A stretch of 47,627 nucleotides of DNA from Mogibacterium sp. (lineage in GTDB: Bacteria > Bacillota > Clostridia > Peptostreptococcales > Anaerovoracaceae), in the NCBI GenBank assembly GCA_017432075.1, contig JAFRJV010000067.1, positions 1 through 47,627 of the forward strand. The letters are read 5' to 3'. The notes under the pieces were generated by a model, which saw only the letters and a list, made by a program, of their open reading frames with translations, was not told where the DNA came from and ran no database searches. Position 1 is the stretch's first letter. The number at the start of each line of letters is the position of its first letter. Made by a program: the position numbers and the translations under genes. Of the stretch, positions 28,961 to 38,709 are shown piece by piece.

Positions 28961-29638
28961 ATGACAATCAATGACCTGTACATTCGAACAATAGATGATC
29001 TGGAAAACGCTGTCACGGAGCTTGGCATTCTGCCGTTCTTTATGAACTCCATCCGCGGGTTCTCGATCGATGAGCATGTCGATCCGGGGATATGGTTCAC
29101 GGGCGAAGATGGTCCGTGGGAGTGGAAGGGACCTGTGATCAACGACCTGGGCTGTGCGTATGGCAAATTCTTTGAGAAGAAGGCGGCGTATATAAGCCTG
29201 GAGTGGTTCCTGCACTTCGCAAACTACCGCCGCGATGGATATGATTTTGACGCGAGATTTGAGGACGGGCTCGTTTATCACGGCGACAAGCTGGTGTATG
29301 ATCTGATAGACAGCAATGCGCCGATATTGTCGAAGCGTCTGAAGCAGCTCGGCAACTACCGTAAGGGTGGCAACAAGGGCTTCGACACAATCATCAACCG
29401 CCTGCAGGCGCAGGGCTACGTGATAATAAGCGACTTCCGGTACATGATCGACAGGGATGGCAGGGAGTATGGCTGGGGCGTAGCTGAATATTCTACACCG
29501 GAGCACTTCATGGGCGAGAGCTTCAGGGCGAAAGTTTATAGCTGCAAGCCTGAGGAATCATATGAGATCCTGTTCGAGCATCTCAGGGATATTCTGCCGG
29601 GTGCAGATGAAACAAGCATAAAGAAGTTTCTAAAGTAA
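28961..29638 (+). CDS. AlkZ/YcaQ-related protein, uncharacterised
   Basis: 225 residues, soluble, no signal. The segments DGPWEWKGPVI, CAYGKFFEKKAAYIS, WFLHFANYRRDGYDFD and GGNKGFDTIINRLQAQGYVIISDF resemble a group of bacterial proteins described as related to the winged-helix DNA glycosylase AlkZ (YcaQ). I recall this from family patterns and cannot test it here. If correct, it would bind DNA or nucleotides, perhaps in repair. No strong RBS; ATG 28961 is the first start in the frame. Monocistronic by layout. Confidence 0.75.
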   Translation: MTINDLYIRTIDDLENAVTELGILPFFMNSIRGFSIDEHVDPGIWFTGEDGPWEWKGPVINDLGCAYGKFFEKKAAYISLEWFLHFANYRRDGYDFDARFEDGLVYHGDKLVYDLIDSNAPILSKRLKQLGNYRKGGNKGFDTIINRLQAQGYVIISDFRYMIDRDGREYGWGVAEYSTPEHFMGESFRAKVYSCKPEESYEILFEHLRDILPGADETSIKKFLK

Positions 29639-29640
29639 AT

Positions 29641-29663
29641 TAGCCCTTATGGCGCTTTTTTGT
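29641..29663 (+). terminator. Weak intrinsic terminator
   Basis: AGCCC pairs imperfectly with GGCGCT (one bulge) around TTAT, followed by six T, directly after the stop of the gene ending at 29638. Confidence 0.4.
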
Positions 29664-29784
29664 TACCCCATGGTATCATTGACTAGCGAGCAGTATAACG
29701 ATCAAAAAAGAAGCTCATAAATGGGAAAAGAAAAACATCACGGCAAAGATCCGCGTGAAATAGCATAAAACAAAGGGGGCTGGG

Positions 29785-30963
29785 ATGAAATACAGAAAAG
29801 ACAGATACGGAAACGAGCTGTCGCAGCTCGGATACGGATGCATGAGGTTCACGAGCAAAGGCTCGAAGATCGACTATGAGAAAGCTGAACGCGAGATCAT
29901 GCGCGCGGTAGAAAAAGGAGTCAACTATTTCGACACCGCTTATGCATACGTGGGCAGCGAGGAGTGCCTCGGCAGGATACTCGAGGAAAACAACGTGCGT
30001 GACAAGGTCAACATAGCGACAAAGCTGCCGCAGTACCTTGTGCGGTCGATGAAGGCGATTGACAGGATCTTCAATGAGGAGCTCACACGCCTTCGCACAG
30101 ATCACGTCGATTATTACCTGATGCACATGTTCACCGACATCTCTGAGTGGGATCGCCTGAAGTCGTACGGGATCGAGGAGTGGATCGCCGCGCGCAAGGC
30201 AGACGGCAGCATCAGGCAGATCGGCTTCTCGTATCACGGCGATACGGAAATGTTCCTGAAGATCCTCGAAGCCTATGACTGGGACTTCTGCCAGGTGCAG
30301 TATAACTACCTCGATGAGACCAGCCAGGCCGGAAGACGTGGCGTGGAAGCCGCCGAGGAGAAGGGCATACCGGTCGTTATCATGGAGCCGCTTCGAGGTG
30401 GCAAGCTGGTGAATCTGCCGGTGAAGGCGAAGCGCGAGCTCATGGACAGCGGCAAAGGCTACACCGCTGCGGAGCTTGGCCTCAGGTGGCTCTGGAACCA
30501 GACGGGAGTGACTGTGGTGCTCTCCGGCATGAACTCACTTGAGATGGTCGATGAGAACATCAGGATCGCATCGGATGCGGAGCCCGGGAGTTTCGGTGAG
30601 AGTGACTTTGCCCTCGTAGAAAGCGTAAAAAAGATCATCAAAGAAAAAGAAAGAGTCGGATGCACAGGATGCAGGTACTGCATGCCTTGCCCGAGCGGTG
30701 TAGACATACCGGCTAACTTCCATCACTGGAACCTCATGTACATAGAGGGAAAGAAGAATCCGGTAAGATTCGAATTTGCGCGTAATGTAGGTCTGCAAGG
30801 CAAACCGGGTTTTGCGAGTCAATGCGTGGGATGCGGTAAATGCGAGATGCATTGCCCGCAGCATATCCAGATAAGGGAGATGCTTAAGAAGGCAGACAAG
30901 GAGCTCAGACCGCTTCCATACAGAATAGTTCTGCCGGTGATCAGAAAGGTCATGTCAAGATAG
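29785..30963 (+). CDS. Aldo/keto reductase with two [4Fe-4S] clusters
   Basis: 392 residues. The barrel has the AKR tetrad: D50 and Y55 in NYFDTAYAY, K80 in IATK, and a His in YYLMHMF. The C-terminal ferredoxin domain has C293/C296/C299/C302 plus CP, and C347/C350/C353/C357. This fusion is typical of anaerobic Firmicutes and probably moves electrons between ferredoxin and a carbonyl substrate. RBS GGGGG before ATG. The NADAR gene starts 15 bases after its stop, so the two may be co-transcribed. Substrate unknown. Confidence 0.93.
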   Translation: MKYRKDRYGNELSQLGYGCMRFTSKGSKIDYEKAEREIMRAVEKGVNYFDTAYAYVGSEECLGRILEENNVRDKVNIATKLPQYLVRSMKAIDRIFNEELTRLRTDHVDYYLMHMFTDISEWDRLKSYGIEEWIAARKADGSIRQIGFSYHGDTEMFLKILEAYDWDFCQVQYNYLDETSQAGRRGVEAAEEKGIPVVIMEPLRGGKLVNLPVKAKRELMDSGKGYTAAELGLRWLWNQTGVTVVLSGMNSLEMVDENIRIASDAEPGSFGESDFALVESVKKIIKEKERVGCTGCRYCMPCPSGVDIPANFHHWNLMYIEGKKNPVRFEFARNVGLQGKPGFASQCVGCGKCEMHCPQHIQIREMLKKADKELRPLPYRIVLPVIRKVMSR

Positions 30964-30978
30964 AAAGGCGCAGTGGTT

Positions 30979-31911
30979 ATGGATAAAAAGGAATTTGTAT
31001 TCTTCTGGAAAACGGATCAGCTAAATAAAGAGTTTACCAACTTTTACCCGTGCTTGTTTTTGGTTGAGGGAATCAAATACAGATGTGTTGAGCAGTACAT
31101 GATGGCAAAGAAAGCGCTTCTGTTCAATGATACAGACATCTATGAGAAAGTCATGAAGACCAAAGACCCTGATGAGATAAAAGCGCTGGGAAGGCAGGTG
31201 AAGGATTTTGATCCTGACATCTGGGACAGATGCAAATGCGAGATCGTTTATAACGGAAACTACGCAAAATACACGCAAAATACGAGGCTCAGAAATGTGC
31301 TGCTTGGTACAGGAGACGTTGTACTGGCAGAGGCCAGTCCGGTTGATAAGATCTGGGGGATCGGGCTCGACAGGGATGATCCGCTTGCATTGGATCCGGA
31401 AAACTGGCAGGGTGAAAACCTGTTAGGGAAGATCCTTATGGATATCCGTGAGGAATTAAAAGCAGGTGTGACCGACAAGTATCATAAAAAAACAAAACCT
31501 CAACTCAGTGAATCTGAGCTGGAGCTGCTGGATACGGTCGACAGGGAAAAACTTGAAGAAATTATTGCAAGTCTCTCGGCTGTTGAAGAAATCGAGTGGG
31601 GCGGAGGCAAGACCGGAGAGAAGACAACGCAGGGCCATGACGTTTATATAATGCCTTATCCCAAATATCCTTTCAGTGCTTTCGAAGCATTGCATATACT
31701 CGGACTCGCCAATCGCGGCACATCTGTCCTTGATAAAATCGATAAAATCGATCCTCATGATTTAGGTTTAAAAGAGATACAGCAATTTTTTGCAGCCCTC
31801 TATACACAGGAAAGATTCTGTGATGGGCTGATAGCCAGGTATATTAATAACGGATATATTCTTATATGCCTTGAGAAGATCCGGGATCTGATGGACTATT
31901 ACGGCAAATAA
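30979..31911 (+). CDS. NADAR-domain protein with an extra C-terminal domain
   Basis: 310 residues from ATG 30979; an in-frame GTG at 30973 is also possible. Residues 1-160 are a NADAR (YbiA/DUF1768) domain: FVFFWKTD, FTNFYPC, YRCVEQYMMAKKA, and the end GIGLDRDDP, WQGENLLGKILMDIRE. NADAR domains remove ADP-ribose or act as N-glycosidases on ADP-ribosylated nucleic acid bases and riboflavin intermediates. Residues about 165-310 are a second domain with YPKYPFSAFEALHIL and GLKEIQQFFAALYTQERFCDGLIARYINNGYIL, similar in feel to DUF6508. Its role is unknown. Located between a ferredoxin-type AKR and the rtcB leader. Confidence 0.85.
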   Translation: MDKKEFVFFWKTDQLNKEFTNFYPCLFLVEGIKYRCVEQYMMAKKALLFNDTDIYEKVMKTKDPDEIKALGRQVKDFDPDIWDRCKCEIVYNGNYAKYTQNTRLRNVLLGTGDVVLAEASPVDKIWGIGLDRDDPLALDPENWQGENLLGKILMDIREELKAGVTDKYHKKTKPQLSESELELLDTVDREKLEEIIASLSAVEEIEWGGGKTGEKTTQGHDVYIMPYPKYPFSAFEALHILGLANRGTSVLDKIDKIDPHDLGLKEIQQFFAALYTQERFCDGLIARYINNGYILICLEKIRDLMDYYGK

Positions 31912-31937
31912 GTCCGGATTTTAAACTACAGGTTTAA

Positions 31938-31966
31938 TAGACAGACGTTGACAGCTGTGGTATAGT
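31938..31966 (+). promoter_or_regulatory. Sigma-A promoter of the rtcB leader
   Basis: TAGACA (31938-31943) and TATAGT (31961-31966) are 17 bases apart. Transcription should start at about 31973, where the first leader stem begins. It is the only good promoter between the NADAR gene and rtcB. Confidence 0.68.
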
Positions 31967-31970
31967 CATG

Positions 31971-32230
31971 TACTGGAAAGGGCCGGGTGCCCGTCAATCA
32001 GATAAAAATCCAGTAAACAGAAAGAGAAGCACAAAACAAATGTTATATCATGTATTTGCATCGAGAAATATAAATACACAATCGAAACCGCAGGTCAATG
32101 ACCTGATGGGACGTCATTTTATGTGCAAATACGAGACAAGACTAATGGGTGCGCGGCAGGCAGCGATCTAGCCGGGTACATACTTTAAGGAACCATGACC
32201 GCTTGTCTCAAAAGAGGCAGGCGGTTTTTT
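31971..32230 (+). promoter_or_regulatory. Structured rtcB leader: candidate attenuator or riboswitch
   Basis: About 258 bases with ordered stems. Stem A: TACTGGA (31971-31977) / TCCAGTA (32009-32015), enclosing GGGC/GCCC. Stem B: GTATTTGCA (32052-32060) / TGCAAATAC (32124-32132), enclosing CAGGTCA (32091-32097) / TGACCTG (32099-32105). Directly after stem B, GAGACAAG (32133-32140) is the perfect complement of CTTGTCTC (32202-32209), which is the first arm of the terminator. So antiterminator and terminator are mutually exclusive. The terminator ends 3 bases before the rtcB RBS, so rtcB needs read-through. It matches no riboswitch class I know; a T-box consensus is absent. Confidence 0.68.
32198..32230 (+). 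terminator. Leader terminator upstream of rtcB
   Basis: A 12-base stem, ACCGCTTGTCTC (32198-32209) with GAGGCAGGCGGT (32214-32225), includes G-U pairs. The loop is AAAA and six T end at 32230. The RBS AGGAGGA of rtcB follows at once. Confidence 0.9.
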
Positions 32231-32247
32231 CATAGGAGGAACAGAAA

Positions 32248-33447
32248 ATGTTAATGATCAGGGGCAAGGTAAATACAGCGGTCTGCTTTGCCAGGGTAAT
32301 TGAAGAAGAGGCAATCGAGCAGATCCGCAGAATGTGCGACTACGAGATCACACGCGGAAGCCGTATCAGGATCATGCCTGACGTGCATGCCGGCAAGGGC
32401 TGCACTATCGGTACTACAATGACGATCATCGACAAGGCAGTACCGAATGTCGTCGGAGTAGACATCGGCTGCGGCATGTATACGGTAAAGCTCGGCAAGG
32501 CGGATATCGACTTTGAGAAGGTCGACGAGGCGTGCCATATCATTTCGTCAGGCTTCGACACCTGGGATAGAGTCATGTGGCCGTTCGATCTTACAGAGCT
32601 GAGATGCTACAGGGAGCTGAAGGATGCAAAGAGACTCAACAGGTCGCTCGGCACTCTCGGCGGAGGCAACCACTTTATCGAGATCGACGAGGCTGCGGAC
32701 GGCACAAAGTATCTCGTCATCCATTCGGGATCGAGAAACCTCGGTACGCAGGTCGCTATGTTTTATCAGCATCTCGCGATCGATCTGAACCACGGCAAGG
32801 AAGAGTATCTCGCTAAGCGTGAACAGATCATCGAAGAGTATAAGGCGGCAGGAAGAAAGAGCGAGATCCAGGCGGCTCTCAATGACCTCAAGTGGGAAAA
32901 GAGAGACTCAGACGTTCCGGATGACCTCTGCTACCTGTATGGCAAGTACCTGGATGACTATCTGCACGATGTGGAGATCTGCCAGGCTTTCGCAAGACTG
33001 AGCAGGGAGAAGATGGCTGAAGTGATCCTCGGGCACACGGGGCTCAAGGCGCAGGAGGCCTTCCATACGATCCACAACTATATCGATACGGATGAGATGA
33101 TCCTGCGTAAGGGAGCGATCGCAGCTCATGAGGGCGAGCTCGTGCTGATCCCGATCAACATGCGTGACGGATCGGTCCTGGCAACAGGAAAGGGCAACCC
33201 TGAGTGGAACTACTCAGCTCCGCACGGCGCAGGAAGGATCATGTCGAGATCAAAGGCTAAGGATGCGATCGGTTTGGATGAGTACAGAAAGGCTATGGAG
33301 GGGATCTACACAACTTCCGTAAGCGCTGAGACCCTGGACGAAGCGCCGATGGCATACAAGTCGCTCGGAGACATCATCGATGTCATCGAAGAATCAGTAA
33401 ACGTAATTGAAGTATTAAAGCCGGTATTTAACTACAAGGCAGGCTAG
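32248..33447 (+). CDS. rtcB: RtcB-family RNA ligase
   Basis: 399 residues. RtcB joins 2',3'-cyclic phosphate or 3'-phosphate RNA ends to 5'-OH ends with GTP and Mn. The signature sites are all present: MPDVHAGKGCTIG, GVDIGCGM (D72, C75), LGTLGGGNHFIE (N141, H142), HSGSRNLG (H159), HNY near H276, and APHGAGR (H326, the guanylylated His). It lacks an intein, and no archease gene is next to it; the shorter length than the 480-residue E. coli type fits the RtcB2-like group. RBS GGAGG. Control through the 260-base leader is likely. A tRNA 3'-half follows directly after the stop. Confidence 0.96.
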   Translation: MLMIRGKVNTAVCFARVIEEEAIEQIRRMCDYEITRGSRIRIMPDVHAGKGCTIGTTMTIIDKAVPNVVGVDIGCGMYTVKLGKADIDFEKVDEACHIISSGFDTWDRVMWPFDLTELRCYRELKDAKRLNRSLGTLGGGNHFIEIDEAADGTKYLVIHSGSRNLGTQVAMFYQHLAIDLNHGKEEYLAKREQIIEEYKAAGRKSEIQAALNDLKWEKRDSDVPDDLCYLYGKYLDDYLHDVEICQAFARLSREKMAEVILGHTGLKAQEAFHTIHNYIDTDEMILRKGAIAAHEGELVLIPINMRDGSVLATGKGNPEWNYSAPHGAGRIMSRSKAKDAIGLDEYRKAMEGIYTTSVSAETLDEAPMAYKSLGDIIDVIEESVNVIEVLKPVFNYKAG

Positions 33448-33497
33448 GCTGGAATGTTGATCCGTTGATGCGAGTTCAAGTCTCGCGGGGATCGCCA
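33448..33497 (+). pseudogene. tRNA 3'-half fragment or tRNA-like minihelix
   Basis: GCGAG-TTCAAGT-CTCGC (33470-33486) is a perfect T-arm with the universal loop. GGGGATC, discriminator G and CCA follow (33487-33497). No D-arm, anticodon arm or matching full 5' acceptor strand is found before it, since rtcB coding sequence ends at 33447. GATCC at 33459-33463 can pair with GGATC of the acceptor end, giving an acceptor/T-arm minihelix. It is either an attachment-site remnant of an integrated element or a tRNA mimic. Amino acid identity cannot be assigned. Confidence 0.7.
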
Positions 33498-33567
33498 ATT
33501 GAAAAAAAGACATAAAACAAATAAACTACTATTAGTTAACGATCAGAAATAGCAGGGGGACGTAGTA

Positions 33568-34341
33568 ATGCTTAATAAGCTTAGGGACGCCATAGAAAAA
33601 AAGCAGTATGCGGTCGGCACATTTCTCGGAGTCGCCAATCCTTCCATCGTGGAGATCATGGGGTACACCGGTCTGGATTTTGTCGTCATAGATACGGAGC
33701 ACGGACCATACGACACGATGCCGATGAGCGATCTGATACAGGCTGCGGAGAGCAAAGGAATATCGCCGCTCGTAAGGATTGCAGATATCACGCACAAGGA
33801 GATGCAGAGGGCATTGGACAACGGTGCCGAAGGCATCATCATTCCATGCCTGAAGAGCCTTGAAGACTTCCGGAAAGTCGTGGAGCTTGGCAAATTCGCT
33901 CCGCTCGGTAACAGAGGGTTCATCAAGGGTCGGGGCAGCGGTTTTGGCAACGAGCCATGGGCATCAGGAACACTGACGGAGTACATGGAGAACAGCAATG
34001 ACAAGGTGCTGCTCCTGCCGCAGTGCGAGACCATGGAGGCATTGGAAAACATAGAAGAGATCGTCCAGATAAAGGGTATCGACGGCATCTTCATCGGGCC
34101 GTTCGATCTCTCGATATGCATGGGTATTCCGGGGCAGTTCGAAGCACCTGAATTCACAGAAGCGGTGGACAAGATACTCCGTGCCTGCAAACAGGCCGGC
34201 AAGCTCTGCATGACCTTCACAAGCTCGCCTGAAGAAGCGAAAAAGTATATCTATAAAGGTTTTGACGCTGTCGCAAACAGCATAGACTCGATAGTGTTCG
34301 CACAGGCCTATAAATCGATGGTCAAAGAGATCCGCGGATAA
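33568..34341 (+). CDS. HpcH/HpaI-family aldolase
   Basis: 257 residues, the usual length. Motifs: VVIDTEHGPYD (metal/His base region), PLVRI, GIIIPCLKS, LPQCETMEALENI (metal Glu) and GIFIGPFDLSICMG (metal Asp). The family cleaves or forms carbon-carbon bonds next to pyruvate in aromatic or sugar acid breakdown, for example HpaI and GarL. The gene stands alone between the tRNA fragment and a terminator, so the pathway is not evident. RBS AGGGGGA before ATG. Confidence 0.92.
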   Translation: MLNKLRDAIEKKQYAVGTFLGVANPSIVEIMGYTGLDFVVIDTEHGPYDTMPMSDLIQAAESKGISPLVRIADITHKEMQRALDNGAEGIIIPCLKSLEDFRKVVELGKFAPLGNRGFIKGRGSGFGNEPWASGTLTEYMENSNDKVLLLPQCETMEALENIEEIVQIKGIDGIFIGPFDLSICMGIPGQFEAPEFTEAVDKILRACKQAGKLCMTFTSSPEEAKKYIYKGFDAVANSIDSIVFAQAYKSMVKEIRG

Positions 34342-34443
34342 GACCCCAAAGAGCAAACTGCTGTTCAAGCAAAAATACAATTCCTAAAAGGCATAATAAT
34401 CTACAATAATTGACCAAGATTCAACATTGCAAACACCTAAAAC

Positions 34444-34489
34444 AAAAACGCCAAAAACCATGAAATTCCAAGTGGTTGACGGCGTTTTT
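34444..34489 (+). terminator. Intrinsic terminator of the aldolase gene
   Basis: AAAACGCC (34445-34452) pairs with GGCGTTTT (34481-34488), with AACCA/TGGTT pairing inside. It ends in five T. The -35 box of the next promoter is inside its second arm. Confidence 0.82.
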
Positions 34490-34503
34490 CCAATTGATAT
34501 AAT
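34476..34503 (+). promoter_or_regulatory. Promoter of the small-peptide transcript
   Basis: TTGACG (34476-34481), 16 bases, perfect TATAAT (34498-34503). Start expected at about 34510. It drives a transcript of about 350 bases ending at the terminator 34836-34859. Confidence 0.75.
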
Positions 34504-34590
34504 TGATGCAAGTCAGGAAAGCAGTGAATCGCGGCTGGCTCGACCCAAGAAGATGCTGTCACATCTCTATACGCCAAGGAGGTGAGGCCA

Positions 34591-34674
34591 ATGACATATT
34601 CTTTAAGGGAAGGGGCCAGAGATGGTACGAGTTACCATAACGCTGAGTCGACGGACCATGCGTGTAACTATTAG
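34591..34674 (+). CDS. 27-residue peptide, first frame of a type I toxin-like locus
   Basis: A very strong RBS, AAGGAGGTGAGG, lies 3-14 bases before ATG. The product starts MTYSLREGARDG and ends DHACNY; it is polar and without a membrane helix. The DNA around the RBS (GGAGGTGAGGCCAATGAC) resembles the start region of Firmicute type I toxin genes, but the product does not look like the usual hydrophobic toxins. It overlaps a second small frame by 53 bases and may serve as a leader for it. Confidence 0.5.
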   Translation: MTYSLREGARDGTSYHNAESTDHACNY

Positions 34675-34705
34675 CATCAAAAAAGCCGCCAGTTCACGTA
34701 ACTAG
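34622..34705 (+). CDS. 27-residue basic beta-type peptide, second overlapping frame
   Basis: ATG 34622 with AAGGGAAGGGG upstream. The product (MVRVTITLSRRTMRV..., ending KKAASSRN) alternates hydrophobic and polar residues and is strongly basic, as in short cationic beta peptides. It overlaps the first small frame in another reading frame. Its last codons and stop lie in the hairpin that is the terminator of the minus-strand RNA, so the antisense RNA covers the end of this frame. Candidate toxin. Confidence 0.45.
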   Translation: MVRVTITLSRRTMRVTISIKKAASSRN

Positions 34706-34757
34706 GCGGCGCCGAAAACATCGGTCGAGTTAGTTGCTGACGAGCAACGCTCTTCCT
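34679..34757 (-). ncRNA. Candidate antisense RNA of a type I toxin-antitoxin locus
   Basis: A minus-strand promoter at 34764-34792 should start an RNA at about 34757. It runs 79 bases and stops at a hairpin GCCGCC (34685-34690) / GGCGGC (34705-34710) followed, on the minus strand, by six T. The RNA is complementary to the end of the second small frame and to the 3' UTR of the plus-strand message. Confidence 0.6.
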
Positions 34758-34763
34758 GACTCA

Positions 34764-34792
34764 ATTATATTCCGCACTAGAAATGTCTTCAA
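34764..34792 (-). promoter_or_regulatory. Promoter of the antisense RNA
   Basis: On the minus strand TTGAAG (34792-34787), 17 bases, perfect TATAAT (34769-34764). Confidence 0.72.
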
Positions 34793-34835
34793 GTGATTTA
34801 AAACATTTCAAAAGTACAAAATACCGCATTTATTC

Positions 34836-34859
34836 ACTCAAGTTCAACTTGAGTTTTTT
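34836..34859 (+). terminator. Terminator of the small-peptide transcript
   Basis: CTCAAG/CTTGAG stem (34837-34853) with a short loop, followed by six T. Confidence 0.85.
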
Positions 34860-34860
34860 A

Positions 34861-34889
34861 TTGAAAGTTCAATTGGTGCTCGCTACAAT
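34861..34889 (+). promoter_or_regulatory. Promoter of the hypothetical protein / XRE-HD operon
   Basis: TTGAAA (34861-34866), 17 bases, TACAAT (34884-34889). Start expected at about 34896. Confidence 0.72.
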
Positions 34890-34908
34890 AGTTGTGGGAA
34901 ACCTTCTA

Positions 34909-34937
34909 TCATAAGCATGTAAGAAGAGTGCTTATGA
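34909..34937. promoter_or_regulatory. 9-base inverted repeat in the 5' UTR, possible operator
   Basis: TCATAAGCA (34909-34917) and its exact reverse complement (34929-34937) with an 11-base gap lie between the promoter and the RBS of the gene at 34956. It could be a binding site for the XRE-type protein encoded second in this operon, or an RNA hairpin. Confidence 0.4.
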
Positions 34938-34955
34938 AACAGAAAGGAGGCTGCC

Positions 34956-35246
34956 ATGAAAAAGGGAACATTCTGGCTGGAAGAGAAGCCTGAGGGCGGA
35001 GTGACTATCTGGATCGAGGATTATGAGGTGGAAGCCTTTGGCGGAGCAGATTATGAGTGGTGCTATTCATTCGATTCGGCAAATACAAGGAAGTTGACCG
35101 ATATCCTGTCGAGGTCAAATGGTGGTTCGCTCAAGCATATGATCGAGGAAGAGTTCGGAATACACCTCGACAAGAAGAGCGCAAAGCTGTGGTTAGATGA
35201 AAACGGGGTGGAATATGAGTTTTTTTCCTGGGTCCACTACAACTAA
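34956..35246 (+). CDS. Hypothetical small acidic protein
   Basis: 96 residues, Trp- and Glu-rich, soluble, without signal peptide. Beta strands in the first half (FWLEEKPEGGVTIWIEDYEVEA), then helical segments (KLTDILS, LKHMIEEEFG). AAAGGAGG 6 bases before ATG. It precedes the XRE-HD gene by 15 bases in one operon, so it may be its partner. No family recognised. Confidence 0.72.
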   Translation: MKKGTFWLEEKPEGGVTIWIEDYEVEAFGGADYEWCYSFDSANTRKLTDILSRSNGGSLKHMIEEEFGIHLDKKSAKLWLDENGVEYEFFSWVHYN

Positions 35247-35261
35247 AAAGGGGTAATTTCA

Positions 35262-36077
35262 ATGAGTATAGGTGAAAACATAATCAGGCTCAGGAAGGCT
35301 AAAAATCTCACACAGGAGAAGCTGGCTGAGAAAATGGGGGTCACATTCCAGGCCGTATCATCCTGGGAACGCGATGAGTATCTGCCGGAGACAGCAAATC
35401 TGAAGAAGCTGGCTGAAGAATTCGATGTTTCGGTAGCAGCGATCCTGGAGGATAAAAAGGGCACGTTCAAGACTAAGGAAGTGATCTACAACTGGGAGCA
35501 CATGAAGACTTATGTGAAAACGACAGCATCTGCTCTCGGCATGCACGATACATACAGGGCCGTAGATTTTGCGGTTGCCGCTCATGAAGGGCAGAAACGC
35601 AAGAAATCAGAGATACCGTACATCTATCATCCGCTCAACATGGCCTGCCACGCTCTGTCGATGGGGATCAGAGAAGATGAGATTATCGCAGCAATCATGC
35701 TCCACGATGTGGTGGAAGACTGCGGTAAGACGATCGACGAACTGCCGGTCGGCGAAGAAGCCAAAGAGCTTGTAAGACTTATGACGAAGGACAAAAGCCG
35801 GGGCAGCCACGATCCGGAGACACTCGATAAATACTATGCCGAGCTCGCGTCCAATCCGAAGGCTGCGCTGATCAAGTGCATTGACAGGTGCAACAACATC
35901 ACTACAATGTCATGGGGCTTCAGCCGCGAAGGCATTTACAGATATATAGAGGAGACGGAGAAGTACTATCCGGGGCTGATCAGGGTTGTCAAGGAGACAC
36001 CTGAATACACATCAGCGTCGTGGCTGCTGAAATACCACATCGAAAGCATGCTGGACATTTACAAGAGGCTGATATAG
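35262..36077 (+). CDS. XRE helix-turn-helix protein fused to a SpoT-like HD hydrolase
   Basis: 271 residues. Residues 5-63 are an XRE/Cro helix-turn-helix (LRKAKNLTQEKLAEKMGVTFQAVSSWERDEYLP). Residues 95-265 are an HD domain of the SpoT/MESH1 type: AAHEGQKRK (H108), PYIYHPL (H123), LHDVVEDC (H148, D149, E152, D153) and KCIDRCNN. The full metal site suggests hydrolysis of (p)ppGpp or a similar pyrophosphate. The fusion could link nucleotide sensing to DNA binding. No synthetase domain. Co-transcribed with the small protein upstream. Confidence 0.9.
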   Translation: MSIGENIIRLRKAKNLTQEKLAEKMGVTFQAVSSWERDEYLPETANLKKLAEEFDVSVAAILEDKKGTFKTKEVIYNWEHMKTYVKTTASALGMHDTYRAVDFAVAAHEGQKRKKSEIPYIYHPLNMACHALSMGIREDEIIAAIMLHDVVEDCGKTIDELPVGEEAKELVRLMTKDKSRGSHDPETLDKYYAELASNPKAALIKCIDRCNNITTMSWGFSREGIYRYIEETEKYYPGLIRVVKETPEYTSASWLLKYHIESMLDIYKRLI

Positions 36078-36078
36078 G

Positions 36079-36109
36079 AAGGAGACAGAGAACCGTCCCC
36101 TGTCTCCTT
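36079..36109. repeat. REP-type palindrome (GAACCGTCCCC class)
   Basis: AAGGAGACAG (36079-36088) and CTGTCTCCTT (36100-36109) form a perfect 10-base stem around AGAACCGTCCC. Palindromes with this GAACCGTCCCC core and GGAGACAG-like arms are known companions of REP-associated (Y1, IS200-like) transposases in many bacteria. No such transposase is in the window. Confidence 0.7.
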
Positions 36110-36143
36110 AGTAGAACAATGATTCAAAGGGTGGAGAATAGAG

Positions 36144-36341
36144 ATGCTGACATACAGATTTGCAAATGAAAATGACTGCGGAAAGATACTTGAATTTATT
36201 GAGGCTCTTGCCGCGTATGAGAAAATGTCTGACGAGGTCGTAGCGACTGAAGACCTGCTGCGGGAATGGATATTTGAGAAGAAGAAGGCGGAGGTGCTGT
36301 TTGCCTGTGAAGACGGCAAAGAAGTGGGTAAGACGAAATGA
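36144..36341 (+). pseudogene. Truncated GNAT acetyltransferase
   Basis: 65 residues. The opening LTYRFANENDCGKILEFIEALAAYEKMSDEVVATEDLL is the start of a GNAT enzyme (about 150-160 residues normally), and VLFACEDGKEVG is its second strand. After that the frame ends within four codons, where the acetyl-CoA-binding half should follow. The stop overlaps the start of the DUF5714 gene, so a deletion joined the two. RBS GGGTGGAG before ATG. Confidence 0.8.
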
Positions 36342-37036
36342 ATGAAGAGTGTTTGATTTGCAAGGCTCCGCTTGAATATCTGGAAACAGATGAACTCATG
36401 GAGTGCGAGATATGCCACAAGAAAGAATACAGCAAAACAAGATGTGTCAACGGACACTATGTCTGTAATGAGTGCCATACTGAAGGCATGGACAGCATTA
36501 TTGGTGCTTGTCTGAATACTGACTCAAAGGATCCTGTCGATATCCTTGAAAAGATGATGGATATGCCGTTTTGCCACATGCATGGACCGGAACATCATGT
36601 GATGGTTGGTGCAGCTCTTTTGACTGCTTATAAAAATGCCGGAGGAAATATCGATCTTGAAAGCAGTTTAAAAGAAATGATGAGTCGTGGCAAAAGTGTG
36701 CCGGGAGGTGCGTGCGGATTCTGGGGCGCATGCGGTGCAGGAGTCAGCTCGGGAATGTTCATTTCCATTATTTCCGGTTCGACACCTCTGGAGAATGAAC
36801 CTTTTGCGTTATCTCACAGGATGACTTCAAGATCATTAGGAGCTATCGCAGACGTTGGTGGCCCGAGATGCTGTAAAAGGGACTCATTCCTGTCTATTCT
36901 CGCGGCTGTTGATTTTGTCAGAGAACATTCTGGAATAGAGATGGAGACACATAAAGTAGTGTGCAGATACTCAGCTCAAAACAATCAATGTATTGGAAAG
37001 CGATGCCCGTTTTCAAAAATCAATAATACAAAGTAA
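36338..37036 (+). CDS. DUF5714 Cys-rich protein
   Basis: 232 residues. An N-terminal zinc-ribbon-like part has ECLICKAPLE, MECEICHKKE, TRCVNGHYVCNECH. The DUF5714 core follows: PFCHMHGPEHHVMVGAALLTAYKNAGGNID, VPGGACGFWGACGAGVSSG, GGPRCCKRDSFL and CIGKRCPFS. The many Cys/His positions suggest metal binding, and the family is found in anaerobes, often next to redox or methyltransferase genes; its function is not known to me. It starts inside the end of the truncated GNAT gene. Followed by a strong terminator. Confidence 0.88.
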   Translation: MNEECLICKAPLEYLETDELMECEICHKKEYSKTRCVNGHYVCNECHTEGMDSIIGACLNTDSKDPVDILEKMMDMPFCHMHGPEHHVMVGAALLTAYKNAGGNIDLESSLKEMMSRGKSVPGGACGFWGACGAGVSSGMFISIISGSTPLENEPFALSHRMTSRSLGAIADVGGPRCCKRDSFLSILAAVDFVREHSGIEMETHKVVCRYSAQNNQCIGKRCPFSKINNTK

Positions 37037-37072
37037 TAAAGAGGGCGCTTCCGACAGGAAGCGCCCTCTTTA
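37037..37072 (+). terminator. 16-base-pair intrinsic terminator
   Basis: A perfect inverted repeat, 37037-37052 with 37057-37072 (loop GACA), with GAGGGCGCTTCC as its GC-rich core. The T run is within the second arm. It starts at the stop of the DUF5714 gene and could work in both directions. Confidence 0.92.
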
Positions 37073-37256
37073 AATCTGTTTTACTTTCATACATGAGCTT
37101 GATGATAAAAAGCTTACCAGTCTTATAAATAATTCCGTAGATATATCAGTCCAGTCCCTTAATAAACAGATTATACCAATGATGGTTTACCGTTTACGAG
37201 ACAATTGTTGTATCATTAATAAAAAAGGAGTAACCGGCAGACAATAGAGGTGGATC

Positions 37257-37754
37257 ATGAGCATGATTTATAACGAAGCAAAGGTAAAGAATCCTCTGAT
37301 AGTAGGTATACGCGAGCAGCTGGAACATCGTGCGCTGTGGATGTACCTTCTGTGTGACGAGGCGGAAAAGCATGGCCTTAAGGCTGAGGACTTTGCTCCC
37401 GATGCGATCAAGAGATGCGGGTTGTATCAGGGTAAGAATCTCGTGGAGAAAGGCAAGAAGGGCTAGTCGCTGAAGGGACTGAAGAAAGCTTTGTTTGGGT
37501 TTTTCGCGCAGAAAGTGTTCGAGATGGATATCCTCCGCTGCGATGATGATCATCTGGACATAGATTTCCATTACTGTCCGCTCGTCAAAGCCTGGCAGAA
37601 GCAGGGCTGCAGCGATGAGCAGATCGCTATGATGTGCGATCATGCAATGTGCGGTGACAGAGGAATAGGAGAGTGCTTTGGCGTAGAGCTGGATCTTCCC
37701 GGAACTATCGCGAAGGGCGATCCGACATGCCAGCTGAGGTATGTAAGAAGATAA
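37257..37754 (+). pseudogene. ATC-hydrolase-family gene interrupted by an in-frame amber codon
   Basis: Residues 1-69 (NEAKVKNPLIVGIREQLEHRALWMYLLCDEAEKHG) are followed by TAG at 37464-37466. The same frame then continues without a break for 95 codons: FHYCPLVKAWQKQGCSDEQIAMMCDHAMCGDRG and the end LDLPGTIAKGDPTCQLR, typical of L-2-amino-thiazoline-4-carboxylate hydrolase-like proteins. Total length with read-through would be 165 residues, normal for the family. RBS GAGGTGG before ATG. Either a single nonsense mutation or stop-codon read-through. Confidence 0.85.
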
Positions 37755-37769
37755 GCGAGGGCTGATGAT

Positions 37770-38174
37770 ATGTGGAAGTGTCCGAAATGCGGCCGTAGTT
37801 TCAGCAGGGAAGGCCAGCACCATTTCTGCGGCAAAATAGAGACAATAGATCAATACATAAATGAGCAGGACGAACAGGTCAGACCGTACCTGAATGAGGT
37901 GAGGCAGATCATACGCGAGGCTATTCCGGATGCGAAGGAAAAGATATCCTGGAGCATGCCGACCTACTGGAAAGGTGTCAACATCATCCACTTCGCGGCA
38001 TCGAAGAAGCATCTGGGGCTGTATCCCGGAGGAGAAGCAACTACGGTGTTCGCGGACAAACTCGAAGGCTATGATGTGAGCAAGGGAACGATCCGCCTGC
38101 CGTACAACAAACCGCTCCCGAAAGAACTGATCGCGGAAATCGCGGAATGGTGTTATAGCCAATATGCAAAGTGA
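37770..38174 (+). CDS. DUF1801 (YdhG-like) protein with a small zinc-binding N-terminus
   Basis: 134 residues. Residues 1-20 (WKCPKCGRSFSREGQHHFCG) carry CxxC-His-Cys, a possible zinc knuckle. Residues 25-134 are DUF1801: VRQIIREAIPDAKEKISWSMPTYW, LYPGGEATTVFADKL and GTIRLPYNKPLPKELIAEI. The fold is related to the frataxin-like iron-binding Fra/YdhG group and the function is unclear. Its end overlaps the long frame of the next gene but the Nudix start is placed 13 bases downstream. Confidence 0.88.
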   Translation: MWKCPKCGRSFSREGQHHFCGKIETIDQYINEQDEQVRPYLNEVRQIIREAIPDAKEKISWSMPTYWKGVNIIHFAASKKHLGLYPGGEATTVFADKLEGYDVSKGTIRLPYNKPLPKELIAEIAEWCYSQYAK

Positions 38175-38187
38175 AGGAAGTGTCGCT

Positions 38188-38709
38188 ATGGCTGAGATCA
38201 TAGATCTTTATGATGTTGACCGTCAGCTGACGGGGAAGACTGCAAATCGTGGAGATAAACTTGAAGACGGCACATACCGGATGGTAGTCCACGTCTGCAT
38301 CTTCAACAGCAAAGGCGAAATGCTGATACAGAGAAGGGCCGACGATATAGTCCGCTGGCCTTCGTATTGGGATGTAAGTGTCGGCGGCGGTGCGAGCGCC
38401 GGGGATACCAGCCGCATGGCTGCGGAGCGTGAGACAGCTGAAGAGGTTGGACTCAACATAGATTTCAGCGACAAACGACCTGTCATCTCAGTCAACTTCT
38501 CGGAAGGCTTCGATGATTTCTATACTATTGAGATGGATATATCACTCGAAGATTTGCATCTTCAGACTGAGGAAGTTGCTGAAGTAAAATGGGCGAGCCA
38601 GAAGGAAATCGAGGAAATGATAGATGACGGCAGATTCATACCTTATCAGAAGGTTCTGATCGGCTATCTCTTTTTCGCGAGAGAAAGAAGGGGAACGTGG
38701 AACCTTTGA
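38188..38709 (+). CDS. Nudix hydrolase
   Basis: 173 residues from ATG 38188, with GAAGGAAG 8 bases upstream; an earlier in-frame ATG has no RBS. Nudix box: GGGASAGDTSRMAAERETAEEVGLNI, with Asp in place of the first Glu. YWDVSVGG precedes it and the N-terminal DLYDVDRQLTGKTANRGD is typical of the IDI/YfcD-like subgroup. These enzymes cleave nucleoside diphosphates linked to another group; this subgroup is related to isopentenyl-diphosphate isomerase. It overlaps the next gene by 13 bases. Confidence 0.9.
   Translation: MAEIIDLYDVDRQLTGKTANRGDKLEDGTYRMVVHVCIFNSKGEMLIQRRADDIVRWPSYWDVSVGGGASAGDTSRMAAERETAEEVGLNIDFSDKRPVISVNFSEGFDDFYTIEMDISLEDLHLQTEEVAEVKWASQKEIEEMIDDGRFIPYQKVLIGYLFFARERRGTWNL

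What the first reader, a model, noticed from the sequence alone, without database searches (positions are those of the whole stretch)
31938..32247. rtcB sits behind a leader RNA with terminator and perfect antiterminator: possible new riboswitch or RNA sensor
The sequence shows a 17-spaced promoter and an approximately 258-base leader with two long-range stems (31971-32015 and 32052-32132). A 12-base-pair terminator ends 3 bases before the rtcB RBS. GAGACAAG at 32133-32140, immediately after stem B, is exactly complementary to CTTGTCTC in the terminator's first arm. This is the layout of a transcription attenuator with exclusive folds. RtcB repairs broken RNA ends, so a leader that senses damaged tRNA, a cyclic phosphate end or a signal nucleotide is plausible. 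I know of no described riboswitch class controlling rtcB, and the T-box consensus is missing.
Basis: partly seen in the sequence, partly recalled or inferred. Interest (0 to 1): 0.86.

Follow-up and report, generated by a model that had tools for sequence, protein, structure and literature searches.

The report
tRNA-checklist leader peptide controls rtcB
The RNA in front of this bacterial RNA-repair gene is probably not a riboswitch but a tiny coding sequence that the ribosome seems to read as a checklist of tRNAs, so that loss of a tRNA would switch on the repair enzyme and, in relatives, an array of replacement tRNA genes.

Summary
Leaders of this kind occur in 15 of 47 genomes of the window's Mogibacterium-like genus, often ahead of rtcB and/or an HTH gene followed by tRNA arrays (up to 28 tRNAs; ROOL RNA in some). 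The same layout turned up in other Clostridia families, one of them including Oscillibacter.

In 55 curated leader/array pairs the leader contains 283 of the 289 amino acids whose tRNAs the array encodes (256 if pairs are shuffled). Own-array residues number 887 versus 699 (free) or 790 (within-group shuffling), P=0.00005. The excess lies mainly 7-26 codons upstream of the antiterminator element and fades about one ribosome edge before it. Codon choice leans to the array's isoacceptors. Antiterminator pairing covaries across families, though one group of 8 mostly lacks it.

Most likely: a ribosome stalled for lack of a tRNA frees the antiterminator, so rtcB and tRNA genes are transcribed. The window copy kept leader and rtcB but has only a truncated tRNA-Asn. 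There are no expression data. The mechanism class is known; tRNA arrays reading their own tRNAs did not appear in the papers searched.

The parts
31921..31937 (+). Promoter-upstream motif TTAAACTACAGGTTTAA (inverted repeat in the window copy), of a kind seen at most leader promoters
   Evidence: Sequence; similar motif upstream of most extracted leaders; motif plus TATATT found 30 times in 14 of 47 genus genomes, 1 control hit (the window copy itself has TATAGT and is not among the 30)
31938..31966 (+). Sigma-70-type promoter, TAGACA - 17 - TATAGT
32020..32028 (+). Probable ribosome-binding site of the leader ORF (GAAAGAGAA)
   Evidence: Sequence; purine-rich stretch at the same place in relatives
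32040..32171 (+). Leader ORF, 43 codons: MLYHVFASRNINTQSKPQVNDLMGRHFMCKYETRLMGARQAAI
   Evidence: homologues; selection
32055..32114 (+). Inferred sensor codons 6-25 (-26 to -7 relative to R2), where tRNA-matched codons are enriched in relatives
   Evidence: by analogy; this copy has only a tRNA-Asn remnant downstream
32133..32140 (+). R2, antiterminator 5' half GAGACAAG (codons 32-34, E-T-R)
32149..32179 (+). Hairpin spanning the leader stop codon, inside the antiterminator loop
   Evidence: 92.6% of cells paired in 17 leaders; covariation not above shuffles
32197..32230 (+). Intrinsic terminator; first arm holds R3 CTTGTCTC at 32202-32209
32248..33447 (+). rtcB, RNA ligase, 399 aa
   Evidence: PF01139 E 5.3e-53
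33447..33500 (+). Truncated tRNA-Asn(gtt) gene lacking its first 26 nt, taken as remnant of a lost tRNA block
   Evidence: 91% identity over 54 nt to an array tRNA-Asn; ARAGORN finds no whole tRNA in the window

Best explanation
rtcB is controlled by ribosome-mediated transcription attenuation. RNA polymerase starts at about 31973 and makes a leader with a 43-codon ORF. If all tRNAs needed for codons about 6-25 are present and charged, the ribosome runs on, R2 is not available for antitermination (by upstream pairing or ribosome passage, inferred), the terminator forms and rtcB is off. If a tRNA is missing, the ribosome stalls 7-26 codons before R2, leaves R2 (GAGACAAG) free to pair with R3 (CTTGTCTC), the terminator cannot form and the operon is read. 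In intact loci the operon encodes RtcB and/or a Cro/C1-type HTH protein and then the very tRNAs whose codons are in the leader, so each leader is a checklist for its own tRNA block: loss of a tRNA, for example by cleavage, would call up the repair ligase and replacement tRNAs. Shown here by sequence: leader ORF, selection, antiterminator/terminator, tRNA arrays, leader-array match and its position. Inferred: stalling, antitermination in cells, tRNA cleavage as the natural trigger, and that the reduced window copy still works. The confidence is for leader-peptide attenuation keyed to the array's tRNAs; whether missing or merely uncharged tRNA is the natural trigger is the first rival's question.
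For: pN/pS 0.49 (11 class-1 leaders) and 0.47 (7 class-2 leaders) in the N-terminal parts versus 0.65-1.70 in shifted frames. R2:R3 pairs 8/8 in 26 of 29 Mogibacterium-type leaders; across 55 leaders own R3 fits better than shuffled R3 (360.4 vs mean 321.9, max 340.8, P=0.0005) with G-C/A-U and C-G/U-A exchanges. tRNA arrays follow leaders. Leader-array match: 283/289 amino acids covered vs 256.3 free and 271.3 within groups, residues 887 vs 699.1 and 789.9, all P=0.00005; with 14 more leaders, 363/372 vs 329.9 and 349.2, P=0.0002. Trp: W in 12/16 leaders with tRNA-Trp in the block, 7/39 without, P=0.0001. Position, 42 leaders: excess at codons -26 to -7 before R2, weak at -6 to -4, none from -3 on. 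Isoacceptors: 346/369 have a readable codon vs 334.9 (P=0.004) or 333.6 within groups (P=0.0013); readable codons 510/625 vs 486.5 (P=0.0013) or 497.0 (P=0.023).
Against: No expression or translation data. Only 42 of 55 leaders have a clear R2; in the L group 1 of 8 (own R3 scores 4.25, foreign 5.01) and in the P group 2 of 5. In the R2-bearing codons pN/pS (0.67, 0.69) is not set apart from the shifted frames (0.61-1.15). Group by group the residue match is not significant in R (n=3, P=0.33) and A (n=6, P=0.14), and the coverage match not in P, R, L and A. In the last 40% of the leader residues show no excess (P=0.14) but coverage does weakly in the 55 (P=0.011; 0.076 with 69). Watson-Crick-only codon matching is not significant within groups (P=0.069). 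Single class-1 leaders are only marginal against random protein windows (coverage P 0.03-0.36). Trp is missing from 4 of 16 leaders whose block has tRNA-Trp; Ala counts run the wrong way. Inside class 1, 7 of 8 R2:R3 pairs never vary and antiterminator covariation is not above shuffles. The window copy has no intact tRNA, so its own match cannot be tested. Some arrays are cut by contig ends. How R2 is hidden without a stall is not uniformly predicted.
Confidence: 0.85

Rival explanations
1. Amino-acid starvation attenuator of the his/trp kind: same switch, but the natural signal is shortage of amino acids (uncharged tRNA), not loss of tRNA molecules. A variant of the trigger, so not exclusive of the best explanation.
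For: Same anatomy; a stalled ribosome cannot tell a missing from an uncharged tRNA; leader codons follow the array.
Against: The controlled genes are tRNAs and RtcB, not amino-acid genes. A leader can test 12 amino acids at once (L300). Codon choice leans to the isoacceptors encoded.
Confidence: 0.3
2. Translation-inhibitor sensor: ribosomes stalled by ribosome-targeting antibiotics free R2, as for many resistance-gene leaders; amino-acid content is incidental.
For: Anabaena's accessory tRNA operon and rtcB are induced by elongation inhibitors (PMC10272220). Any stall in codons 6-25 would work.
Against: It does not explain why leader residues and codons follow the encoded tRNAs, mainly in the window before R2.
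Confidence: 0.12
3. A ligand-binding riboswitch or other translation-independent RNA sensor.
For: Long structured leader with terminator and antiterminator.
Against: Selected ORF, no Rfam match, coding content tracks tRNA genes in relatives.
Confidence: 0.03
4. Arrest peptide: the conserved C-terminal FVCKYET..VRH stalls the ribosome in response to a ligand in the exit tunnel.
For: C-terminal peptide is conserved in both Mogibacterium leader classes.
Against: R2 and the stop-codon hairpin overlap those codons, so RNA constraint can explain it; O, P, R, L and A group leaders have other C-termini.
Confidence: 0.07

Closest known systems
his/trp-type leader-peptide attenuators (recalled textbook systems)
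   Same: Short leader ORF, codons matched to the controlled pathway, exclusive antiterminator and terminator, stalled ribosome as switch
   Different: Output is tRNA genes plus RtcB, not amino-acid synthesis; one leader tests many amino acids; separate leaders match separate tRNA blocks
Salmonella rsr-yrlBA-rtcBA operon, RtcR (PMC7790460, abstract and outline seen)
   Same: RtcB expression tied to damaged tRNA
   Different: There a CARF-domain activator binds tRNA fragments; here a leader peptide would read the loss at the codon
Anabaena accessory trn operon and rtcB under TrcR (PMC10272220, abstract and passages seen)
   Same: Spare tRNA operon and rtcB induced under translational stress
   Different: RHH repressor; the words 'leader' and 'attenuation' do not occur in that paper's main text; tRNA operon on a megaplasmid, rtcB on the chromosome
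ROOL-bearing tRNA islands of phages and prophages (PMC12286853, passages seen)
   Same: ROOL RNA beside tRNA clusters (L054, L055, L065)
   Different: Our motif scan found no leader at a ROOL/tmRNA-like/tRNA island of G1136; the arrays here carry HTH genes and leaders, many also rtcB
T-box leaders (recalled)
   Same: Transcription attenuation that reports tRNA state in Gram-positive bacteria
   Different: No T-box Rfam match; sensing here would be by translation, not by direct tRNA binding

Membership tests
Ribosome-mediated leader-peptide attenuator | Translated short ORF with ribosome-binding site ahead of a terminator | tested here: met
   (by sequence and selection, not by experiment; leaders were picked as ORFs with such a site)
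Ribosome-mediated leader-peptide attenuator | Antiterminator and terminator share a strand and exclude each other | tested here: met
   clear in 42 of 55 leaders, 1 of 8 in the L group
Ribosome-mediated leader-peptide attenuator | Regulatory codons matched to the controlled genes, upstream of the antiterminator | tested here: met
   for the pooled set; not testable in the window copy, which has no intact tRNA
Ribosome-mediated leader-peptide attenuator | Stalling at those codons raises read-through | not testable with these tools
   needs reporter or in vitro work
Riboswitch (any Rfam class) | Match to a known family | tested here: not met
   no match, even at E 10
T-box | Rfam T-box match | tested here: not met
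Accessory tRNA operon | Many tRNA genes beyond the housekeeping set, in one operon | tested here: inconclusive
   Arrays of up to 28 tRNAs; G1136 has 95 tRNA matches in all, but housekeeping sets were not compared anticodon by anticodon; the window copy has only a remnant

The most novel reading that the evidence does not exclude
A widespread Clostridia immune-like system against tRNA-cleaving toxins: leader peptides act as ribosome-read checklists of tRNA isoacceptors, each calling up RtcB and replacement copies of exactly the tRNAs that fail, each block regulated by its own tRNAs and its leader rebuilt in evolution as the block gains or loses tRNA genes.
Probability: 0.5. Interest if true: 0.95.

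Novelty: new variant of a known kind. Interest (0 to 1): 0.86.

Why it matters
It would be a case of tRNA genes controlled by attenuation that reads the very tRNAs they encode, with many amino acids tested by one leader. It gives rtcB of these Gram-positive bacteria a candidate sensor where the CARF activator of Salmonella is the known case, offers a reason for tRNA arrays (some with ROOL RNA) in gut bacteria, and makes clear predictions: adding or removing a codon in the leader should add or remove the response to one tRNA.

Tried and rejected
Riboswitch and T-box: no Rfam match. Pangram idea (class-1 leaders just sample all amino acids): 18-20 distinct residues is unusual (P of 19 or more about 0.04, of 20 about 0.005 per 42-43 aa window), but leaders with 14-17 exist and follow their block instead, so it was replaced by the checklist reading. 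Random-window tests of single class-1 leaders were marginal; the pooled shuffles carry the claim. Covariation inside class 1 was uninformative for R2:R3. Ro60/TROVE reading of the array-end protein was dropped: Pfam gives DUF2828 and DUF7788 for the one tested.

Rows left out of the 55: near-duplicates of leaders kept (among them L069, L107/L130, L123, L124, L133, L166, L238, L259, L261, L303, L304, G000b-2, G004, G004-2, G019, G026b), doubtful or single-tRNA cases (L062, L128, L180, L260, L281, L289, the window copy) and leaders without tRNA found downstream (among them L059, L063, L064, L070, L103, L106, L120, L122, L134, L135, L140, L143, L154). Fourteen of these, including the window copy with Asn as its block, were put back and the result held; leaders without any tRNA cannot be scored. 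Where a longer in-frame ORF existed the inner ATG was taken by homology (L242, L282, L296 and several Mogibacterium loci, the window among them). tRNAs between leader and rtcB were counted in the block. Structure counts used 17 of the 29 leaders (alignment A4); alignment A3 held 27 of 29 but the two classes are out of register there.

Not followed: what the promoter motif binds; whether all 30 motif sites stand at leaders; the R1:R2 fold in detail; a covariance model.

Full report
WHAT IS THERE. The window holds, in order, a promoter-like site (31938-31966), a leader ORF of 43 codons (32040-32171), a terminator (32197-32230) and rtcB (32248-33447, PF01139 E 5.3e-53). The frame is also open from an ATG at 31968, which sits at the likely transcript start. 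Rfam finds nothing in the window at gathering scores or in 31900-32260 at E 10.

HOMOLOGUES. The leader DNA matches three places in the window's own genome. Of 60 genomes searched, own included, 14 match, none of the 24 from other genera. In the genus 16 of 47 match by DNA, two of these only over a 31-base terminator stretch (G022, G069). A peptide profile finds 18 of 47 at E 0.1, 15 of them at E 0.001 or better; those 15 are the 14 real DNA matches plus G001. Record titles call near relatives Mogibacterium sp. or Clostridiales gut MAGs. Twenty-nine leaders were extracted as ORFs with a terminator. In the N-terminal parts pN/pS is 0.49 (11 class-1 leaders) and 0.47 (7 class-2), against 0.65-1.70 in the shifted frames; in the R2-bearing codons it is 0.67 and 0.69 against 0.61-1.15, so there the coding signal is not separable.

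WHAT THE LEADERS PRECEDE. ARAGORN finds 5 to 28 tRNAs in 13 of 18 fetched regions, one in L062 and none in L059, L063, L064 and L070. A typical locus has two blocks, each with promoter, leader, terminator, an HTH_3 protein of about 105 aa and tRNAs; rtcB or another gene may stand between leader and HTH gene. ROOL RNA lies in L054, L055 and L065. In the window only a tRNA-Asn lacking its first 26 nt follows rtcB.

OUTSIDE THE GENUS. The HTH protein led to 79 loci in named records of Mogibacterium, Oscillospiraceae, Lachnospiraceae, Erysipelotrichaceae and others, to 129 of 397 genomes of one unnamed family of the class, 38 of 300 of another, which includes a genome with the contig length of Oscillibacter sp. 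MSJ-31, 10 of 391 across the class, own included, and 13 viral contigs. Many stand alone: 17 of 63 loci examined had three or more tRNAs within 4 kb downstream, and 27 of 40 larger regions had tRNAs. Of those 27, 25 gave a candidate leader with this type of terminator; rtcB motifs occur in 19 of the 40 (by motif only). In one search, a stricter scan of 128 loci that asked for the promoter motif, 32 leaders came out.

THE MATCH. Leaders look like lists of the tRNAs behind them. Block Pro, Arg, Thr, Lys, Arg: MLNTRRLPRTNNRTTRFPRVGKGTG.... Block Glu, Gly, Lys, Leu, Tyr: MIDIRTIKGLEYGKELYELQGKLYG.... Block with Glu, Gln, Trp, Asp, Leu, Ser, Lys, Asn, Met, His, Phe, Tyr: MIAVRFSLSWKKHMEQLQSSFNYLDRHF.... 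In the O group, W is in 7 of 7 leaders with tRNA-Trp and in 0 of 7 without (rows). In 55 curated pairs (19 Mogibacterium-type, 36 others), 283 of 289 block amino acids occur in the leader; shuffling blocks among leaders gives 256.3, shuffling only within groups 271.3; own-block residues are 887 against 699.1 and 789.9 (all P=0.00005, the limit of 20,000 shuffles). For the 36 others within groups: 486 against 417.5, P=0.00005. Group by group the residue test is significant in O (P=0.0004), L (P=0.001) and P (P=0.04), not in R (n=3, P=0.33) and A (n=6, P=0.14); the coverage test is significant in O only (P=0.0002; P 0.65, R 0.33, L 0.57, A 1.0). With 14 further leaders: 1100 residues against 872.1 and 986.0, P=0.0002.

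ISOACCEPTORS. Shuffling synonymous codons among leaders: 346 of 369 block isoacceptors have a readable codon against 334.9 (P=0.004) or 333.6 within groups (P=0.0013); readable codons 510 of 625 against 486.5 (P=0.0013) or 497.0 (P=0.023); Watson-Crick only 379 against 352.8 (P=0.0027) or 367.8 (P=0.069). Blocks with only Arg(tct) have 14 AGR and 5 CGN codons, blocks with only Arg(acg) 9 and 18; Ser codons show no such split.

POSITION. The residue excess sits in the 20-60% stretch of the leader (249/471 vs 163.9 and 241/470 vs 156.0, P=0.0005 each) and not in the first 20% or the last 40% (P 0.12, 0.31, 0.37). Within groups the last 40% shows no residue excess (P=0.14) but a weak coverage excess (P=0.011 with 55, 0.076 with 69 leaders). 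Measured from R2 in the 42 leaders with a clear R2, the excess runs from codon -26 to -7 (free P=0.002 in each bin; within groups P 0.008, 0.068, 0.005, 0.002, 0.002), is weak at -6 to -4 (0.045 free, 0.10 within) and absent from -3 on and before -26. A ribosome waiting with an empty A site covers about 4-5 further codons (recalled), so it would leave R2 free only if it stalls where the excess lies. This is the strongest mechanistic evidence; R2 position was not used in choosing the leaders.

SWITCH. With the ribosome taken as stalled before R2, the RNA from R2 to R3 is predicted to fold with at least 6 of the 8 R2 positions paired in 28 of 29 Mogibacterium-type leaders; in the remaining one (G017-2) a shifted pairing is predicted. 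Across the 55, own R3 fits the leader better than shuffled R3 (360.4 vs 321.9, maximum 340.8, P=0.0005), with exchanges G-C/A-U (17/22) at pair 1 and C-G/U-A (19/7) at pair 5 among the 42 leaders with a clear R2. Clear R2 by group: O 14/14, M1 7/7, M2 6/7, M3 4/5, A 5/6, R 3/3, P 2/5, L 1/8. In 17 class-1 leaders R2:R3 is fully paired but 7 of 8 pairs never vary; the terminator is 98.6% paired with covariation above shuffles (2 of 500 reach it); the stop-codon hairpin is 92.6% paired, its covariation not above shuffles (115 of 500). How R2 is hidden when the ribosome does not stall is open: upstream pairing of R2's core has mean probability 0.00-0.71 over 29 leaders.

PROMOTERS. A motif TTAAACYAC...TNANT with TATATT 18-32 nt on was found 30 times in 14 of 47 genus genomes, with 1 control match. 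Most of the sites seen in detail stand before leaders; not all were examined. The HTH protein is a candidate to bind it (inference).

KNOWN AND NEW. Ten searches of the open-access library listed no paper on leader peptides controlling tRNA arrays or rtcB; several listings were cut (for example 15 of 177) and subscription papers are missing, so this is not proof. RtcB control by broken tRNA is known in Salmonella through RtcR (PMC7790460, abstract and outline). Anabaena has an accessory tRNA operon and rtcB under the repressor TrcR, induced by elongation inhibitors (PMC10272220, abstract and passages). ROOL near tRNA islands is known (PMC12286853, passages). The mechanism class is the classical leader-peptide attenuator; the object it controls and the multi-tRNA checklist appear new.

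LIMITS. All evidence is by sequence. Many genomes are MAGs with arrays cut by contig ends. Leaders within groups are related, which is why within-group shuffles are given. The curated set was chosen by ORF, ribosome-binding site and terminator, not by composition, but by one person. The window copy itself has lost its array, so for it the function is inferred from relatives; its sensor part holds three Asn codons where most class-1 relatives have one, which fits the Asn remnant but is an anecdote.

Noticed in passing
window 33447-33500: tRNA-Asn(gtt) gene lacking its first 26 nt right after rtcB, 91% identical to an array tRNA-Asn.
   Followed up: yes
L056 12706-12854 and 14255-14405 (minus strand): Two array tRNAs carry a 75-76 nt insert in the anticodon loop (by place in relatives they look like Val(tac) and Ile(tat), ARAGORN with introns names them Arg(tct) and Lys(ctt)). 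The insert is a dispersed, partly tandem repeat with matches in 38 of 47 genus genomes at E 0.01.
   Followed up: partly
L314 2266-2935 (G1136): Three tRNA genes with predicted inserts of 42-53 nt in or beside the anticodon loop, near an ORF whose start resembles the array-end protein by eye. Possible small tRNA introns in a bacterium; not explained.
   Followed up: partly
L018, L020, L022: A related attenuator (terminator GCTTGTCTCTAAAAGAGGCAGGC, R2-like GAGGCAAG) ahead of a methyltransferase gene (PF08241 in L020); the leader is Asn-rich (L018: MKTLFASANVNNNNTTLNNHQGDSFRSHIRGKKR).
   Followed up: no
window 30973-31911: The gene before the leader is a NADAR-domain protein (PF08719 E 6e-55) with a match to a PADLOC candidate defence model.
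   Followed up: no
L054 1234-5535 versus window 28961-38709: Several genes before a tRNA array in a relative resemble genes around the window's rtcB (by eye, protein starts), so the window site may be a former array site.
   Followed up: no
L054 11513-13009; similar ORF starts in L055, L056, L063, L070: A protein with DUF2828 and DUF7788 domains (tested for L054 only) follows arrays or leader loci.
   Followed up: partly
L312 (G1136:C1:1050000-1061500): A separate tRNA island with ROOL and a tmRNA-like match; our motif scan found no leader there.
   Followed up: partly
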